This document shows, in pieces, positions 1,522 to 16,871 of a stretch of DNA of 40,004 nt. The notes below the pieces were generated by a model that was not told the origin of the DNA, did no database searches, and saw only the letters and a list, made by a program, of their open reading frames with translations. The stretch spans positions 1 through 40,004 of the IMG/VR virus record IMGVR_UViG_3300029787_000122. One strand, 5' to 3'. The stretch comes from a virus. Made by a program: the position numbers and the translations under genes. Position 1 is the first letter of the stretch. The number at the start of each line of letters is the position of its first letter.

Positions 1522-1778
1522 AACGCCCCCGACAAATACCGCGCCACGGCGCTCTGCTCATGCTGCGCCACCAGATCCGCCACGTTATTCGGCGCCTGAC
1601 CCACCAGGCACCAGCGGGAAAAGCGGCCCTCGCCGATCAGCTCTACCAAGCCTTTGTCGCGCATGTTCACCAGGACCCACTGGGTTTTCTTGCCCGGCAG
1701 GCCAAGGCATTTGGCTATCTCGCCCCGGCTCATGGGTCCGTCTTGCAGCAGGTCCAGGATTCGGTCTGTGTGGGTCAT
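1518..1778 (-). CDS. Small winged-helix DNA-binding protein
   Basis: The ATG at 1778 is chosen over 1826 because it is preceded by GAAGGAGG and forms an ATGA overlap with the methyltransferase stop. The 86-residue product opens MTHTDRILDLLQDGPMSRGEIAKCLGL, followed by QWVLVNMRDKGLVELIGEGRFSRW. This is the helix-turn-helix plus wing layout of small MarR/ArsR-like or phage replication-associated regulators. It lies directly downstream of the C5 methyltransferase, so it may be a regulator of that operon or a replication accessory factor. No close family is claimed. Confidence 0.65.
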   Translation of the reverse strand: MTHTDRILDLLQDGPMSRGEIAKCLGLPGKKTQWVLVNMRDKGLVELIGEGRFSRWCLVGQAPNNVADLVAQHEQSAVARYLSGAL

Positions 1779-2695
1779 GCGGCCTCCTTCACTGCCTGTA
1801 GAACTCTGGACACAGGCAGCGGACAAACAGCATTGCCAAGCAGGTGCATGGCCAGAGAGTGGTTTTCAGGGAGTTGGTAGGATTCCGGAAAGGTCATTGC
1901 TGCCCTCCCCTCGAATCGGGAAATCATGCGCATGCGGTTGCCGTCCACGATGGCCCAGCGGTCCCGGGTGGTAATCGTTCCGATAGGACGATCCAGGGAC
2001 CGCCCTGTCTTGCCTGATCCGCTGCCGTAGTACGGCATCAAAAACCGTTCCCCGAACTTGGCCCGGCCAGCTTTCACCCTCTCGAGTGTTGCCTTAACCC
2101 GGCCCGGCCGGTCTATCTGGCTCCAGTTGCCGGAATCAAAATCAATGAAGCTGGACGCCGGCTTGTGCTCGTAGCGAGGAAGGTTCAGCAGAAGCGGCGC
2201 TTTCGTCTTGGTCAGCACCAGGAACATGCGGATGCGATTTTGCGGGGCGCCCAGGTCTGCCGCATCGATTACATGAGGGGAAACCACATAGCCCAGGGCA
2301 TCGATCGCCATCTTCCAGGCCGGATAAAGCGGCCAGTCGAGAAATTCCTTCACGTTCTCAACCACTGCCACCTCTGGCTGATGGAACTCCAGGGCAGAAA
2401 CAACCGCCCAGGCGGTAGAACGGCTGGCGTCGTGCTGAGGGTTGCCATTGTCTTTGCCGCGGGCCTTGCTGTGTCCTTGGCAGCAGGGGCTGGCCAGGAG
2501 AATGTCGTGGGCCGGCACCTGCGACCAATCCGCCTGATGCAGATCCTGGCAAACGTGCATGGCGCCCGGGTGATTCTTGCTGTGCCACTCCACCGCGTCC
2601 GGCCAATGGTTCGCAGCCCATACCACTTCATGCCCAGCCATGGTTGCGCCAGTGGAGAAACCGCCACCGCCCGCAAATAAATCGATTACCTTCAT
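1775..2695 (-). CDS. C5-cytosine DNA methyltransferase
   Basis: The enzyme transfers a methyl group from S-adenosylmethionine to cytosine in DNA, most likely to protect phage DNA from host restriction. Motifs from the ATG at 2695: motif I DLFAGGGGFS (residues 5-14), motif IV ASPCCQGHS with catalytic Cys72, motif VI VVENV (111-115), motif VIII QNRIR (152-156) and motif X LLGNAV near the end. The usual Pro before the catalytic Cys is replaced by Cys71. At 306 residues it is a compact enzyme with a short target-recognition domain. The longer frame from 2818 overlaps the upstream gene; the chosen ATG has a GGGGGTGG upstream and an ATGA overlap. No cognate restriction enzyme is present, so it is an orphan. 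Confidence 0.93.
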   Translation of the reverse strand: MKVIDLFAGGGGFSTGATMAGHEVVWAANHWPDAVEWHSKNHPGAMHVCQDLHQADWSQVPAHDILLASPCCQGHSKARGKDNGNPQHDASRSTAWAVVSALEFHQPEVAVVENVKEFLDWPLYPAWKMAIDALGYVVSPHVIDAADLGAPQNRIRMFLVLTKTKAPLLLNLPRYEHKPASSFIDFDSGNWSQIDRPGRVKATLERVKAGRAKFGERFLMPYYGSGSGKTGRSLDRPIGTITTRDRWAIVDGNRMRMISRFEGRAAMTFPESYQLPENHSLAMHLLGNAVCPLPVSRVLQAVKEAA

Positions 2696-3033
2696 GCTGC
2701 CACCCCCTTTCGCGTCATGGCGGCCACTGCGGCAGCTCTTTGCCCATCGGTGAGGATGTAGCCGTTCACGACACTGCGAACCCCCTGCAGGGCTCCTGGC
2801 TGGCACTCCACGCAACAAGCGGCAACCAGCTCATTCAGGCGGGCGCTTGTCTTGCTGTTCTCCCACTTTGCTAGCGGATAGCGCACCTTGAGACGGTCTG
2901 TGACTTGGTCGCAGCTCAACGGCTTGCGCGAAGCCTTCAGAACAGTCATTACCTGCCGGCGCCGTTCGGACTGAACAGCCAGGGGCATGTTGTGATAAGC
3001 CTCGCGGCTGGTTTCGGTTACGTTGGTTTTCAT
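2692..3033 (-). CDS. Winged-helix-like phage protein (113 aa)
   Basis: Not assigned to a named family. It begins MKTNVTETSREAYHNMP, then has a helix-rich region (VMTVLKASRKPLSCDQVTDRL) followed by TSARLNELVAACCVEC. This order is reminiscent of small phage winged-helix proteins that lie next to replication genes. It overlaps the helicase loader (upstream) and methyltransferase (downstream) by ATGA junctions, so all three are probably translationally coupled. A replication or regulatory accessory role is inferred from position only. Confidence 0.6.
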   Translation of the reverse strand: MKTNVTETSREAYHNMPLAVQSERRRQVMTVLKASRKPLSCDQVTDRLKVRYPLAKWENSKTSARLNELVAACCVECQPGALQGVRSVVNGYILTDGQRAAAVAAMTRKGVAA

Positions 3034-5430: not shown

Positions 5431-5646
5431 TCAGGCGGCGGTTTCGTCCCAAGGAAAGTCCGGGCAAAGGTCGCGGCGGGAGAATTCGCCATCGGTTGCG
5501 CGCTCAGCCCTTACCGACACCATTGGCCCCGGCTTGAAGGCGCCCCGGCACCAACCGCTGACAGTGGACTGATCCACATCCAGCGCCTTGGCTGTGGCCT
5601 CCTGGGTACCGAAGTGCTTAACCAGTGACTGGTAGATGTTGTCCAT
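5431..5646 (-). CDS. cro: Cro-like repressor (YdaS/Cro family)
   Basis: A 71-residue protein divergent from cI across an operator region, as expected for Cro, which represses the lysogenic promoter during lytic growth. The helix-turn-helix is clear in residues 10-35: GTQEATAKALDVDQSTVSGW, followed by CRGAFKPGP, the pattern of YdaS-type Cro proteins. The start at 5646 lies 16 bp from the first operator, and its ribosome site is weak (GAGAT). It is the first gene of the minus-strand early operon. The 135 bp between its stop and the next gene hold no convincing ORF; a nut-like site is expected there by analogy but I could not identify one. Confidence 0.85.
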   Translation of the reverse strand: MDNIYQSLVKHFGTQEATAKALDVDQSTVSGWCRGAFKPGPMVSVRAERATDGEFSRRDLCPDFPWDETAA

Positions 5647-5661
5647 TTTTCGATCTCACAT

Positions 5662-5675
5662 ATTAGATTTCTAAT
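5662..5675. promoter_or_regulatory. Operator OR1-like (perfect dyad)
   Basis: ATTAGATTTCTAAT, a dyad of two 6-bp half-sites (ATTAGA and TCTAAT) around a 2-bp centre. It lies closest to cro, over the likely start point of the cro transcript. The same sequence occurs at 5686 and, degenerated, at 5710, 7519 and 7544. Confidence 0.85.
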
Positions 5676-5676
5676 A

Positions 5677-5705
5677 GAGTAAGGCATTAGAACTCTAATT
5701 TGCAA
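5677..5705 (-). promoter_or_regulatory. Candidate early promoter PR for cro operon
   Basis: On the minus strand TTGCAA (5705-5700) is followed after 17-18 bp by TTACTC/TACTCT near 5682-5676. The -10 match is weak (about 3 of 6), but the spacer contains a perfect operator, as expected for a repressed early promoter. TTGCAA is self-complementary and is also the -35 of the cI promoter. Confidence 0.45.
5686..5699. promoter_or_regulatory. Operator OR2-like (perfect dyad)
   Basis: ATTAGAACTCTAAT has the same half-sites as the operator at 5662 and is spaced exactly 24 bp from it. It sits in the spacer of the candidate cro promoter and just beside the shared -35 hexamer. Confidence 0.85.
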
Positions 5706-5735: not shown

Positions 5736-6392
5736 ATGGAACTTAGCGAAAGAGTGAAGGCTGCTCGCTCACATGCAGGGCTGAAGCAACCGGAGCTGGC
5801 CAAGCTTGCAGGCGTTACGCAAGCTGTCATCTCAAATCTAGAAAGAGGGGTTGCGGGAAGCTCAAAAAAGCTGCCCAAAATCGCTCGTGTCTGCGGGGTA
5901 AGGGTCGATTGGCTGACTATGGAGTCAGGGCCTATGCTTGACGATCCGGCAACAGTGCAGGCCAACGGCGGCGACGTTGAGCCTGGCCCAGACATGCCGG
6001 GCTCAATACCCATAATTAGTTACATCCAGGCCGGGGAGTTTTGTGAGGCGGTTGACCTGTTTCAGCCCGGTTACGCAGAAGACTTCTTACCGATACGCCC
6101 AGCAAATGCCGGTCCTCACGTTTACGCGTTGCGCGTAGAAGGCCGGAGCAACCACCCCGTTATTCAGGATGGAGAGGTTGTTATCGTCGATCCTGACAAA
6201 TCTCCTGATTCGGGCAAGTTTGTAGTTGCAAAGCGGCATTCTGACGGCCATGTCACCCTGAAGCAGCTTAAATACAGCGAGGGAGTTCCGTATATTGAGG
6301 CTGCCAATGAGAATTGGCCGGACCGGATAATCAAGGTTGATGGGGACTGGAGCATTTGCGGCGTAGTGGTAGGGAAGTATCAGCCAATGTAG
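5736..6392 (+). CDS. cI: CI-like repressor with S24 autocleavage domain
   Basis: The prophage repressor. Residues 3-40 form a helix-turn-helix (QPELAKLAGVTQAVISNLERG). Residues 90-218 are a LexA/CI S24 peptidase domain: cleavage site Ala99-Gly100 in SYIQAGEF, nucleophile Ser138 in RVEGRSN and general base Lys176 in HVTLKQL. The prophage should therefore be induced through RecA by DNA damage. The usual Ser-Met pair after the nucleophile is Ser-Asn here. At 218 residues it has the family size. It is divergent from cro across three operators, and the 315-aa downstream gene lies 58 bp after it, before a terminator, so the two are likely co-transcribed in the lysogen. Confidence 0.93.
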   Translation: MELSERVKAARSHAGLKQPELAKLAGVTQAVISNLERGVAGSSKKLPKIARVCGVRVDWLTMESGPMLDDPATVQANGGDVEPGPDMPGSIPIISYIQAGEFCEAVDLFQPGYAEDFLPIRPANAGPHVYALRVEGRSNHPVIQDGEVVIVDPDKSPDSGKFVVAKRHSDGHVTLKQLKYSEGVPYIEAANENWPDRIIKVDGDWSICGVVVGKYQPM

Positions 6393-6450
6393 CGCCTATC
6401 CGTGGGACTGGGGGCAATATAACAATAATCTGCAAAAGGAGACTGGCGGC

Positions 6451-7398
6451 ATGGACAGCGGTTCAGCGCAGAACGATAATCCGGACATGAGCAAAGCATC
6501 TTTTCAAGTCGTTTATGATGGTCCCGCGCTGGCCTCCCACGAAATGGAGGTGCGGGATCTTGCGCCTGCTCTACTTGCAATGGGTGATCTTTTCGAAGAA
6601 GCAGGTGCCACCCTTAACCCGAGCGGATCGAAAATATCGGTCAAGGTTAATGGGTCATTCAAAACAGGATGCTTTGCAATTGACTTAACGATCAATCAGA
6701 GCCTCTATCAGCAGGCTATAGAGCTTTTTACCTCTGATGCTGCGGCAGCAGCTTTAAACATCTTGGCCTTTGTCGGTTTTGCCGGATCTGCCAGCGGTGG
6801 CGTTTTCGGCCTTATCAAATGGTTGCGAGGACGCCGAATAACCAATGTGGAGATATTGGACAACGGGAAGGTCAAAGTATTCTGCGATTCCGATCTATAT
6901 GAAACCGAGCAGCAAGTATTGGATTTATTCCGGAACTGGAAGGTTAGAAAAGCGTTCGAGGATGTAGTAAGGAAGCCGCTCCAGCGCGAAGGCGTAGATC
7001 ACTTTGCGATCAAGCTGGAGGGAAGCAAATTTGTCTCCGTTTCACAATCTGAAGCCGAATATTTTGTGGCTCCTGAGCAAGATGAAGAGCGCCTGGATTC
7101 AAGCGAGAGGGTTGCCAGCCTACAATTGGTGAATGTCCCTTTCCGCGATGATAACAAGTGGCGCTTTTATGATGGCGCCGCAACTTTTTATGCTGCAATG
7201 CTCGATGAACCGTTTCTCCACCGGGTTGAGCAAGGCATAGAAAGGTTTGGCAAGGGCGACATCCTGAAAGTAAAGCTCCAAGAAGAAAAAACGCTCGCCG
7301 GAGAAACACTCAAAGCCGTGTATTCAGTGATTGAAGTGCTTGAGCACCGACAGGCCGCCGCGCAGCTCAACCTGCCAATGTCCAAACCTGACGCCTAG
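6451..7398 (+). CDS. Unknown membrane-associated protein in the rexAB position (lysogenic gene)
   Basis: A 315-residue protein of unassigned function. It lies between cI and the PL-like promoter, followed by a terminator, so it should be made from the lysogenic cI transcript, as lambda RexA/RexB are. From the N-terminus: a conserved-looking soluble region (VVYDGPALASHEMEVRDLAPALLAMGDLFEEA, then KISVKVNGSFKTGCFAIDL); a hydrophobic stretch, residues about 97-125, rich in Ala/Gly and ending in KWLRGRR; then a larger mixed domain with FAIKLEGSKFVSV and the EEKTLAGETLKAVYSVIEV ending. One membrane pass or a hydrophobic hairpin is likely. Base use looks more AT-rich than the late genes. The start has AAAAGGAG nine bases upstream. 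Superinfection exclusion or abortive defence is an inference from position only; no homology to Rex is seen. Confidence 0.8.
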   Translation: MDSGSAQNDNPDMSKASFQVVYDGPALASHEMEVRDLAPALLAMGDLFEEAGATLNPSGSKISVKVNGSFKTGCFAIDLTINQSLYQQAIELFTSDAAAAALNILAFVGFAGSASGGVFGLIKWLRGRRITNVEILDNGKVKVFCDSDLYETEQQVLDLFRNWKVRKAFEDVVRKPLQREGVDHFAIKLEGSKFVSVSQSEAEYFVAPEQDEERLDSSERVASLQLVNVPFRDDNKWRFYDGAATFYAAMLDEPFLHRVEQGIERFGKGDILKVKLQEEKTLAGETLKAVYSVIEVLEHRQAAAQLNLPMSKPDA

Positions 7399-7420
7399 CT
7401 CGTCAGATTCTCGACCACCA

Positions 7421-7444
7421 AGCCCGCCAAGCGCGGGCTTTTTT
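7421..7444 (+). terminator. Terminator of the cI lysogenic operon
   Basis: AGCCCGC (7421-7427) pairs with GCGGGCT (7433-7439) and is followed by a run of Ts to 7444. It ends the transcript carrying cI and the 315-aa gene and separates it from the downstream early promoter. Confidence 0.9.
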
Positions 7445-7518: not shown

Positions 7519-7532
7519 ATTAGATTTCTCAT
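7519..7532. promoter_or_regulatory. Operator OL-like copy 1
   Basis: ATTAGATTTCTCAT differs from the perfect operator at 5662 by one base. It abuts the -35 of the PL-like promoter, so bound repressor would block it. Confidence 0.8.
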
Positions 7533-7560
7533 TGACCATTTAAATTAGATAACTAATACT
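7532..7560 (+). promoter_or_regulatory. PL-like early promoter
   Basis: TTGACC (7532-7537; 5 of 6) with a 17-bp spacer to AATACT (7555-7560; 4 of 6). Operators overlap the -35 and the spacer/-10. It would drive the plus-strand early genes from 7595 to the integrase. Confidence 0.7.
7544..7557. promoter_or_regulatory. Operator OL-like copy 2
   Basis: ATTAGATAACTAAT is a near-perfect dyad, 25 bp from the first OL copy, in the spacer and -10 of the PL-like promoter. A lone half-site ATTAG at 7507 may be a remnant of a third site. Confidence 0.75.
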
Positions 7561-7594: not shown

Positions 7595-8002
7595 ATGAAC
7601 TCAGCCCTCAGAAACCAGCAAGCCATGGCCAGCGCGCAAGCAGCGTATGACAACGCACTGCCGGTGGACGATCTGGATTTCCTGGATTGCGCCGAGGGCG
7701 AGGAATGGCAGAAGGATGCCGCCGAGGAACTGGCAGGCGGCAACGAAACCCATCACACGCTGGATGGAGTGCCGGTTTTCCAGTGCGACCTCATCCAGAA
7801 GCTGCTGGCCAGCGAGGAAGGCCAGGAAAAGATGGAGTGGCTGCTGTCCTGCCTGCTGGATGACCTGATCACCGGCGGCGATGACAACGCCAACCGCCGC
7901 GACGTTTGCGAAACCGACATTAAGAAATGGGCGCTAGAGGAAGCCGAAAAGATGGTGGCCCCTTACGCAAACGCCCACGTTGAAGCACGGATGGAGCCGT
8001 AA
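7595..8002 (+). CDS. Very acidic first early protein (135 aa)
   Basis: Unrecognised. It is the first gene of the PL-like operon. By count it has about 30 Asp/Glu against about 10 Lys/Arg, and the acidic residues cluster in DDLDFLDCAEGEEW, LLDDLITGGDD and WALEEAEK. Strong negative charge with a helical character is seen in early phage proteins that mimic DNA and block host nucleases or restriction enzymes, but many acidic proteins do other things. A clear GGAG ribosome site precedes the ATG. The position corresponds to lambda N/kil/gam-type early genes; no Arg-rich N-like antiterminator is seen. Confidence 0.65.
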   Translation: MNSALRNQQAMASAQAAYDNALPVDDLDFLDCAEGEEWQKDAAEELAGGNETHHTLDGVPVFQCDLIQKLLASEEGQEKMEWLLSCLLDDLITGGDDNANRRDVCETDIKKWALEEAEKMVAPYANAHVEARMEP

Positions 8003-15350: not shown

Positions 15351-16871
15351 TCAGTACCCGTCCGGTGTTGTTACTGTCCAGCCGCGTCCACGCAGAGCAT
15401 CCACAGCTGTCTTTGCTGCGCCAGTTGTAGTTGCGCTGCCCCCGGTAATGCCGAGCGTGCCGCTGCTTGTGCCCGCTGCCTCGATGGCTGTCACAATGTC
15501 GGCGTAGGATTGTTGTGAGAGGTTCGTGTTTGCAAAAGCGTTACCGTAGGCAATGCAGGGACTGTCGGAAAATGGGCTCCCAGTACCACCGTAAACTATA
15601 ACCGTCTCCAGAATTGTACAACCGGAAAACAAATTAATGGCGTCAAAAGTAAGACCAGACGTAACCCAGTGACTCACGTCGATTGATGTGATGCCCAGCC
15701 CAATGAATGCGTTGGTGAGCCACTCTGTCGATGCAGTCACTAAATACGGAACAGAAATATCGCTTACATTCGACGCACCTCTTGCAAACTCTCGCAAATC
15801 TTCAAATTCAGGTCGCCACCTGGAGCAATCAAGCCTAGTCAAATCCGTTCTATTTCTGAACCAGCCTCGACCATCGGTCGGGACGGTAGAAAAGTCGGCA
15901 ACCGGGCAACGCTGCCCGACCCAATCTACCAGCCCGTCAACCTCATTTTCTGCGAGCGTGCGGTTAACGATAACCGTGTGAATGTCCGATGCTGGCCCCG
16001 GATAGTTCGGATCGGTCGGTATCTGATACGGCCCCTCCGGTACATCAATCTCGCCTACAATGACACCCAGCGCCGTACCCTGCACAAAAGTGCCGGACCA
16101 GCCGCCAACAGGGACATCAATCAGCATGGCGTCGTCGGTGCTGTCCAGCGTAAGAGCCTGAACGCCGTCAACGATCTGTACGGTTGGCTTGGCGGCTGTT
16201 GTCGTCTGGTATTGATCGTTACCGTTACCGGACTTATCGACACGACGACCGCAGGGATCACCCGGTTCTGCTGAGGTTGAGCCGCCAGTGTCCTGGAACA
16301 AAGTGCCGCTGTCTGTTGAATCAACGAAAACCCCATCAGTGCCATCAGCAAAAAACACTTCCGGACCAAAATATATGGAGAATTGACCGCTAGATTTTGC
16401 CGCCGCGTCTTCGTCTGTCCAGGCATACGGGTAATAGGTGAGATCCTGGATTTTCGCCAGGCCGGCACTGGACAGAAACTCTGGCTCTGCAGCTGAAAAA
16501 GGATCGACCGTGAAAAGCACCTCTCCGTCTGCCCAGCACTTCCCGGCCCCGTTGCTATAAACAAAAACCAGCGTGCCCGAGCCTTCCATGAATTCACCAA
16601 AACCAGAGCCCGGTATCGGCATGGATTTGTCCAGATCAGCCTTTATTACCCAAGTGCCTGAGCTGGAATTGAAGTTCGGAATATCGTTGATGGCTGCGGT
16701 TTCTGACAGGCTGGCGTCAAGCATCAAGCCCTCGCCAACACCTTCGCTATAATTGAACCGAGGAACATCGGTGCCAGCTGTCTGGGTGTCACCATTGACG
16801 TCCTCATAATCAGCAGGATCAGGGCGCGAAAAAGTGAACGCAACATTGAACGGGACGGTTTTAAGCGCCAT
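15351..16871 (-). CDS. Tail fibre / receptor-binding candidate with leucine-rich-like region
   Basis: A 506-residue protein. Residues 1-30 look like a tail-attachment strand region. The middle has a Gly/Ser/Thr-rich, beta-type composition. Residues about 340-440 carry GWFRNRTDLTRLDCSRWRPEFEDLREFARGASNV and SIDVSHWVTSGLTFDAINLFSGC, which resembles DUF285/BspA-type leucine-rich-like repeats used for surface binding. The end (IVTAIEAAGTSSGTLGI ... DALRGRGWTVTTPDGY) is a common phage fibre C-terminal module. It likely reads the host receptor. It starts at a TAATG junction with the upstream gene. Confidence 0.75.
   Translation of the reverse strand: MALKTVPFNVAFTFSRPDPADYEDVNGDTQTAGTDVPRFNYSEGVGEGLMLDASLSETAAINDIPNFNSSSGTWVIKADLDKSMPIPGSGFGEFMEGSGTLVFVYSNGAGKCWADGEVLFTVDPFSAAEPEFLSSAGLAKIQDLTYYPYAWTDEDAAAKSSGQFSIYFGPEVFFADGTDGVFVDSTDSGTLFQDTGGSTSAEPGDPCGRRVDKSGNGNDQYQTTTAAKPTVQIVDGVQALTLDSTDDAMLIDVPVGGWSGTFVQGTALGVIVGEIDVPEGPYQIPTDPNYPGPASDIHTVIVNRTLAENEVDGLVDWVGQRCPVADFSTVPTDGRGWFRNRTDLTRLDCSRWRPEFEDLREFARGASNVSDISVPYLVTASTEWLTNAFIGLGITSIDVSHWVTSGLTFDAINLFSGCTILETVIVYGGTGSPFSDSPCIAYGNAFANTNLSQQSYADIVTAIEAAGTSSGTLGITGGSATTTGAAKTAVDALRGRGWTVTTPDGY

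What the first reader, a model, noticed from the sequence alone, without database searches (positions are those of the whole stretch)
6451..7398. Unassigned 315-aa membrane protein in the rexAB slot: candidate lysogen-expressed defence or exclusion gene
It follows cI on the same strand, precedes a terminator and the PL-like promoter, and is thus the only other gene likely to be on in the prophage. It has a soluble VVYDGPALASHEMEVRDLAPALL-type N-terminal domain, a Gly/Ala-rich hydrophobic segment and a larger C-terminal domain; no Rex likeness is visible. In lambda the equivalent genes block other phages. This is the best candidate here for an undescribed system.
Basis: inference. Interest (0 to 1): 0.7.

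Follow-up and report, generated by a model that had tools for sequence, protein, structure and literature searches.

The report
Prophage defence gene beside cI
A virus dormant in a bacterium carries, next to the switch gene that keeps it dormant, a gene from a widely shared family whose studied relative in mycobacterial viruses helps infected cells stop other viruses; here it works, if it does, without the partner gene that the relative needs.

Summary
The ORF at 6451-7398 is a real, strongly conserved gene (dN/dS 0.02 against a 98% identical copy). It lies 58 bp after an S24/CI repressor and before an intrinsic terminator, and the pair is bracketed by two copies each of one 14-bp palindrome at OR and OL. 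This is the lambda cI-rexAB slot; the family occurs in 34 of 5,426 E. coli genomes, and two inspected loci have exact lambda gene order. The 'membrane protein' label is weak: the hydrophobic stretch is borderline. The family is already catalogued as phrog_3243, PADLOC candidate PDC-S42 and NCBIfam NF053583 ('putative phage structural protein'). New here: full-length homology to MichelleMyBell gp29 (181 bits against a cut-off of 60; profile E 5e-15), the toxic half of the published gp29-gp30 abortive-infection system. The window lacks the gp30 partner. Relatives moved repeatedly into two phage slots (after cI; within Mu-like head operons), and 4 of 17 chromosomal copies sit among defence genes. 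AlphaFold gives a C-terminal OB-like fold. Best reading: a partnerless variant of the gp29 abortive-infection family, expressed in the lysogen. Defence by the window gene itself is untested, and the mechanism is inferred.

The parts
5431..5646 (-). Cro/YdaS-like small protein (71 aa), first gene of the rightward (PR-type) operon on the opposite strand
   Evidence: ORF divergent from cI; YdaS/Cro-like genes hold this place in the E. coli relatives
5662..5675 (.). operator OR copy 1, ATTAGATTTCTAAT
5686..5699 (.). operator OR copy 2, ATTAGAACTCTAAT
5736..6392 (+). cI: HTH + S24 LexA-like prophage repressor, 218 aa
   Evidence: Pfam HTH_3 1.4e-9 and Peptidase_S24 1.1e-19; phrog_4 8e-44
6437..6441 (+). 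AGGAG ribosome-binding site, 9 nt before the ATG
   Evidence: sequence read directly
6451..7398 (+). the gene: 315-aa member of NF053583 / PDC-S42 / phrog_3243; homologue of MichelleMyBell gp29
   Evidence: dN/dS 0.02
6493..6696 (+). N-terminal domain, residues 15-82 (YDGPAL ... RDLAPALL ... GSFKTG motifs)
   Evidence: model mcd4834a3eb62; conserved columns in A2
6724..6825 (+). Gly/Ala-rich hydrophobic segment, residues 92-125; two short helices in the model, borderline for a membrane segment
7084..7350 (+). C-terminal five-strand-plus-helix OB-like domain, residues 212-300 (NKWRFYDG ... FGKGDIL motifs)
7420..7440 (+). intrinsic terminator closing the cI-gene unit
7519..7532 (.). operator OL copy 1, ATTAGATTTCTCAT (one mismatch)
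7544..7557 (.). operator OL copy 2, ATTAGATAACTAAT
7595..8002 (+). first gene of the early (PL-type) operon, phrog_4801, outside the lysogen unit

Best explanation
The gene is an anti-phage gene of the prophage, co-transcribed with cI from the repressor-maintenance promoter and therefore on in the lysogen (inferred from layout). Its product is a homologue of MichelleMyBell gp29, the toxic part of an abortive-infection pair, but without the 2-TM partner gp30. Proposed mechanism, inferred: the protein is held inactive in the uninfected lysogen; the OB-like C-terminal domain senses something made during another phage's infection (single-stranded nucleic acid or a replication protein is the plainest guess); the N-terminal part, with its hydrophobic hairpin, then halts the cell, so that phage enter but few are produced. 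Shown here: real gene, slot, bracketing operators, full-length homology to gp29, absence of gp30, repeated capture by phages. Not shown: expression, toxicity, defence, ligand.
For: Same family by curated model: window 274 bits, MichelleMyBell gp29 181 bits, Gordonia Ohgeesy gp32 179 bits, cut-off 60; profile-profile E 5e-15 over 265 columns. Literature on the relative: MichelleMyBell 29/30 are viral defence genes with an abortive-infection pattern (PMC6426606; PMC5559632; PMC8549241); gp29 toxic, gp30 a putative membrane protein (PMC11856565). Slot: 18 of 61 loci directly behind a repressor, gaps -4 to 140 bp; E. coli order O-P-cro-cI-[gene]-kil-gam-bet-exo-xis-int; operators bracket the unit. 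The slot is a known cargo site: BstA (PMC8585504), GiPD474 and remAIN (PMC12724215); RexAB-type defence also in P. putida (PMC12894663). A sibling phage carries an unrelated small protein with two hydrophobic segments in the same slot. Four of 17 chromosomal members lie by type I or IIG restriction, Gabija, AbiD or RhuM genes. Tree: the after-cI label needs at least 15 changes. OB-fold: nearly all leading PDB matches of two models are SSB, RPA, ExoVII or LysRS OB domains.
Against: No experiment on any partnerless member was found in the papers at hand. gp30, needed with gp29 in the studied system, has no credible match in the window or loci. The OB match is by fold only, best E 3e-3, and the two models share one alignment. 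About a sixth of dereplicated copies (9 or 10 of 61) lie inside Mu-like head operons, which lysogens normally keep silent. A few members sit alone between housekeeping genes. No matched background was run for the defence-island count.
Confidence: 0.62

Rival explanations
1. It is a virion or head-assembly protein, as NCBI's name 'putative phage structural protein' says.
For: NF053583's name. Nine or ten of 61 loci lie in Mu-like head operons, after portal, minor head or neck genes and before the head protease.
Against: In the window and at least 23 other dereplicated loci it lies behind cI, away from structural genes. The Mu-head position arose at least 5 times independently on well-supported branches, as for an inserted accessory gene. 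Members also sit on conjugative plasmids and beside Gabija or restriction genes.
Confidence: 0.07
2. It is a membrane exclusion protein that blocks DNA entry of other phages, like SieB, RexB or Charlie gp32.
For: Hydrophobic Gly/Ala-rich segment, KD 1.85 in the window protein; same slot as rexAB in lambda; a sibling phage has a small protein with two hydrophobic segments there.
Against: Predicted helices of 13 and 8 residues, mostly soluble mixed alpha/beta protein; family median hydropathy 1.44, MichelleMyBell gp29 1.09; in the relative the membrane part is a separate protein and DNA injection proceeds (PMC6426606).
Confidence: 0.15
3. It modulates the prophage's own switch, for instance by binding DNA near OR or OL and biasing lysis-lysogeny, as RexA is reported to do.
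For: Co-directional with cI and an OB-like domain; RexA precedent in the abstract of PMC11077077 (listed).
Against: Near-identical copies serve phages with quite different operators (window and L001), and the family exists on plasmids and chromosomes without a repressor beside it.
Confidence: 0.08
4. It is a lysogenic-conversion gene with no role in phage defence (host fitness or stress).
For: Some chromosomal copies stand alone beside housekeeping genes such as dxs.
Against: Homology to a defence protein, defence-island copies, and the slot's record.
Confidence: 0.08

Closest known systems
MichelleMyBell gp29-gp30 (MMB_gp29_gp30) prophage defence, Mycobacterium cluster N phages
   Same: gp29 is a full-length homologue in the same curated family; carried by temperate phages near the integration and immunity genes
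   Different: No gp30 (67 aa, two hydrophobic segments, overlapping gp29) in the window or in the loci searched; the window gene is behind cI rather than behind the lysis genes, and has a longer, more hydrophobic central segment
PADLOC PDC-S42, NCBIfam NF053583 (LAPAL family), phrog_3243
   Same: Direct membership: PDC-S42 E 1e-101, NF053583 274 bits, phrog_3243 E 1e-77
   Different: PDC-S42 is only a candidate; NF053583's 'structural' name fits a minority of loci
Phrann/Squirty gp29-gp30, (p)ppGpp-synthetase-type defence
   Same: Squirty gp29 carries this family's C-terminal domain (NF053583 75.9 bits, residues 129-232) and a gp30
   Different: Its N-terminal part is RelA/SpoT-like (PDC-S33), absent from the window protein
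Lambda RexAB
   Same: Same genomic slot, co-directional with cI, between cI and the leftward operators
   Different: One gene rather than two; no sequence or fold match to RexA; no 4-TM RexB
BstA and GiPD474 (Gifsy) prophage defence proteins
   Same: Single defence genes in the prophage immunity region, BstA directly downstream of the repressor
   Different: BstA has a KilA-N-type domain (own knowledge) and GiPD474 is a ParA-like ATPase; the window protein has no Pfam match to either

Membership tests
NF053583 / PDC-S42 / phrog_3243 | curated model score over most of the protein | tested here: met
   274 bits against cut-off 60, residues 18-301; PDC-S42 E 1e-101; phrog_3243 E 1e-77
NF053583 as 'phage structural protein' | location with structural genes | tested here: not met
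   Window gene behind cI; 9-10 of 61 loci in head operons, 24 of 61 after a repressor
MMB gp29-gp30 system | gp29-family protein | tested here: met
   Homology only: NF053583 covers both; hhalign E 5e-15 over 265 columns
MMB gp29-gp30 system | adjacent gp30 2-TM membrane protein | tested here: not met
   tblastn of two gp30s against window and loci: no credible hit, and a terminator follows the gene
MMB gp29-gp30 system | toxicity and abortive-infection phenotype | not testable with these tools
   Needs bench work
RexAB | RexA homologue plus 4-TM RexB | tested here: not met
   No Pfam, PDB-sequence or listed fold match to RexA; single gene before the terminator
RexAB-type slot | co-directional gene between cI and OL, ahead of the early operon | tested here: met
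   Operators at 5662/5686 and 7519/7544, terminator at 7420; same order in E. coli prophages
BstA | BstA domain composition | tested here: not met
   No Pfam hit at E<=1 and only PDC-S42 models in PADLOC
GiPD474 (ParA-like ATPase) | P-loop ATPase domain | tested here: not met
   No Pfam hit at E<=1
Integral membrane protein | transmembrane helix conserved in the family | tested here: inconclusive
   KD19 1.85 in the window, family median 1.44, short helices in the model
OB-fold nucleic-acid-binding domain | five-strand barrel with helix, nucleic-acid binding | tested here: inconclusive
   Topology fits and top fold matches are OB domains (Rim1 TM 0.61-0.69 by target length, E 3e-3 to 4e-3), none below 1e-3; binding not tested

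The most novel reading that the evidence does not exclude
A one-gene abortive-infection family, spread over Pseudomonadota, Bacillota and Actinomycetota phages, that has absorbed or dispensed with the gp30 membrane partner: a single chain with an OB-like sensor of phage replication and a hydrophobic hairpin effector, doing alone what RexA+RexB or gp29+gp30 do as pairs.
Probability: 0.25. Interest if true: 0.7.

Novelty: new variant of a known kind. Interest (0 to 1): 0.5.

Why it matters
It ties three unlinked labels (PADLOC candidate PDC-S42, NCBI 'putative phage structural protein', MichelleMyBell gp29) into one family and corrects a misleading database name. It also gives a ready test: the E. 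coli member (WP_000338655.1 in the two loci inspected; family in 34 of 5,426 complete genomes by DNA match) sits in a lambda-like prophage and can be assayed with standard E. coli phages. If the partnerless form defends, it would show what gp30 is for and give a simpler system for an abortive-infection mechanism that papers still call unknown.

Tried and rejected
Single-sequence scans of viral and genome collections gave few relatives; the alignment query gave 159. PDB by sequence and by profile: nothing. Pfam: nothing for the gene. Papers: no text mention of PDC-S42; Dedrick et al. 2017 is not held, so gp29-gp30 facts come from later papers. GiPD474 looked like a possible match from its title but is a ParA-type ATPase. 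Considered and rejected: Rex homologue, BstA, structural protein, gp30 hidden downstream. The long N-terminal extension of the L079 ORF is spurious and was trimmed. Promoter scan: number of sites no higher than in shuffles, so not used.

Full report
The observation. The ORF at 6451-7398 on the + strand is as described: 315 aa, ATG start, AGGAG 9 nt upstream. It is a real gene: against the 98% identical copy in L001 there are 65 synonymous and 6 non-synonymous codon changes, dN 0.008 and dS 0.39. It begins 58 bp after cI, a 218-aa HTH plus S24 repressor, and ends 21 bp before an intrinsic terminator.

The slot. The palindrome ATTAGANNNCTAAT occurs four times in 40 kb: at 5662 and 5686 between the cro-like gene and cI, and at 7519 and 7544 between the terminator and the next early gene; chance expectation is 0.14 strand-matches against 8 seen. 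These are most simply OR and OL, so cI and the gene form a unit enclosed by the repressor's own operators, as cI-rexA-rexB is in lambda. Two heteroimmune siblings have the same layout with other operators: L001 with ATAGGNNNNCCTAT and phage CBW1004C-Prop1 with ATGGGNNNNCCCAT, two sites at each end. L001 keeps the same gene (98% protein identity) although its operators and the repressor's DNA-binding half differ (38 of 70 residues identical, against 143 of 148 in the C-terminal part). CBW1004C-Prop1 carries instead an 87-aa protein with two hydrophobic segments. The slot is thus a cargo site whose content changes independently of immunity.

The family. The protein matches phrog_3243 (E 1e-77), PADLOC candidate PDC-S42 (E 1e-101) and NCBIfam NF053583 (274 bits, cut-off 60); it matches no Pfam family and no PDB chain by sequence. 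IMG/VR holds at least 159 relatives; the 80 best, with the other hits, reduce to 61 loci at 90% identity. A gene of the repressor cluster lies immediately upstream on the same strand in 18 of 61, with gaps of -4 to 140 bp, and within three genes upstream in 24; only six further cases fall at all other positions within five genes. In E. coli the gene occurs in 34 of 5,426 complete genomes, all chromosomal, and two inspected loci show lambda order: O, P, YdaT, cro-like, cI, [gene], kil, gam, bet, exo, and in one of them xis and int next to icd. Gram-positive phages carry it beside the integrase or the lysis genes (A2, vB_LmoS_188, PMBT6). The sibling CBW1004C-Prop1 lacks it, so it is accessory.

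A second niche explains the NCBI name. In nine or ten of 61 loci the gene lies in Mu-like head operons, after portal, minor head or neck genes and before the head protease. On a maximum-likelihood tree the Mu-head label needs 8 changes, at least 5 on well-supported branches, and the after-cI label at least 15. Repeated entry into the same two places is what a mobile accessory gene does, not a conserved virion part. Niche labels rest on a simple ORF caller and clustering, so counts are approximate. Why a Mu-like head operon should be a home for it is unexplained.

The link to a tested defence system. A search with the C-terminal part reached Mycobacterium cluster N phages. MichelleMyBell gp29 scores 181 bits against NF053583, Gordonia Ohgeesy gp32 179 and prophiT48-1 gp86 184; PDC-S42 matches gp29 at E 1.6e-16; a profile comparison aligns 265 columns at E 5e-15. 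Published accounts call MichelleMyBell 29/30 viral defence genes (PMC5559632), with an abortive-infection pattern in which adsorption and DNA injection proceed but phage production is thwarted (PMC6426606); the MichelleMyBell prophage reduces Tweety plating by four to five orders of magnitude (PMC8549241); gp29 is described as toxic and gp30 as a putative membrane protein, mechanism unknown (PMC11856565). The original paper (Dedrick et al. 2017) is not held, so these are second-hand. Squirty gp29 joins a RelA/SpoT-like N-terminus, identical to Phrann gp29 over the 123 residues compared, to this family's C-terminal domain, which suggests that the C-terminal domain is a swappable control or sensing part, next to the same gp30.

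What differs here. gp30 (67 aa, two hydrophobic segments) overlaps gp29 in the actinophages but has no credible match in the window or fetched loci, and the terminator leaves no room for another gene in the unit. The window protein's central segment is longer and more hydrophobic than gp29's; whether it replaces gp30 is a guess.

Structure. Two AlphaFold models (window protein and the L060 member; mean pLDDT 82.7 and 82.6) agree, though they share one alignment: an N-terminal strand-helix-two-strand domain, two short hydrophobic helices, a middle alpha/beta part, and a C-terminal five-strand barrel with a helix between strands 3 and 4, the OB topology. Leading PDB matches are OB domains (Rim1 mtSSB, Rfa1, actinobacterial SSB, ExoVII, LysRS), none under E 1e-3. 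In BFVD the best match is a siphovirus DUF6575 protein over 311 columns at E 2.7e-9, then a Pipsqueaks protein at 3.9e-8. The membrane claim is weak: Kyte-Doolittle peak 1.85 here, family median 1.44, gp29 1.09.

Chromosomal relatives. In 398 Pseudomonadota genomes 21 had a match, 15 over the cut-off. Of 17 loci examined, four lie among defence genes: L130 next to a type IIG restriction enzyme, L134 in a type I restriction/HerA cluster, L132 next to an AbiD gene, with RhuM- and HsdS-type Pfam families among the neighbours of L132 and L134, and L136 two genes from Gabija GajA-GajB (the assignment of RhuM and HsdS to these two loci follows from clustering and is inferred). L136 is under the NF053583 cut-off. 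Others sit alone, some by dxs. No background was run, so this is support, not a test of enrichment.

Conclusion. The most likely account is a partnerless, lysogen-expressed relative of the MichelleMyBell gp29 abortive-infection protein: about 0.75 for an anti-phage role, about 0.3 for the specific OB-sensor mechanism.

Noticed in passing
window 5662-5699 and 7519-7557; L001 5209-5270 and 7046-7084; L139: Three sibling phages have three different palindromic operator sets that change in step at OR and OL while the region between is partly conserved; a natural series for repressor-specificity work.
   Followed up: yes
L139 7406-7666 (- strand), phage CBW1004C-Prop1: An 87-aa protein with two hydrophobic segments fills the same slot after the repressor in a sibling phage; another candidate exclusion gene.
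   Followed up: partly
L115 2593-3345, Squirty gene 29: Natural chimera of a RelA/SpoT-like N-terminus (as in Phrann gp29) with this family's C-terminal domain.
   Followed up: partly
L022, L032, L048, L063, L078, L080, L083, L028: Family members inserted in Mu-like head operons between minor head/neck genes and the head protease, several independent times; reason unknown.
   Followed up: partly
L004 2901-3773, Listeria phage vB_LmoS_188: The gene directly before the family member is annotated 'putative superinfection immunity protein' (phrog_11062).
   Followed up: no
window 1775-2818 (- strand): ORF holding MKVIDLFAGGGGFSTGATMAGHEVVWAANHW, looks like a C5 cytosine DNA methyltransferase in the early operon.
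   Followed up: no
window 15351-16871 (- strand): 506-aa ORF whose C-terminal part resembles BspA-like surface repeats, near the integrase end of the phage.
   Followed up: no
BFVD A0A8S5QA00: The best viral fold match is a DUF6575 protein over nearly the whole length, so DUF6575 may be a remote branch of this family.
   Followed up: no
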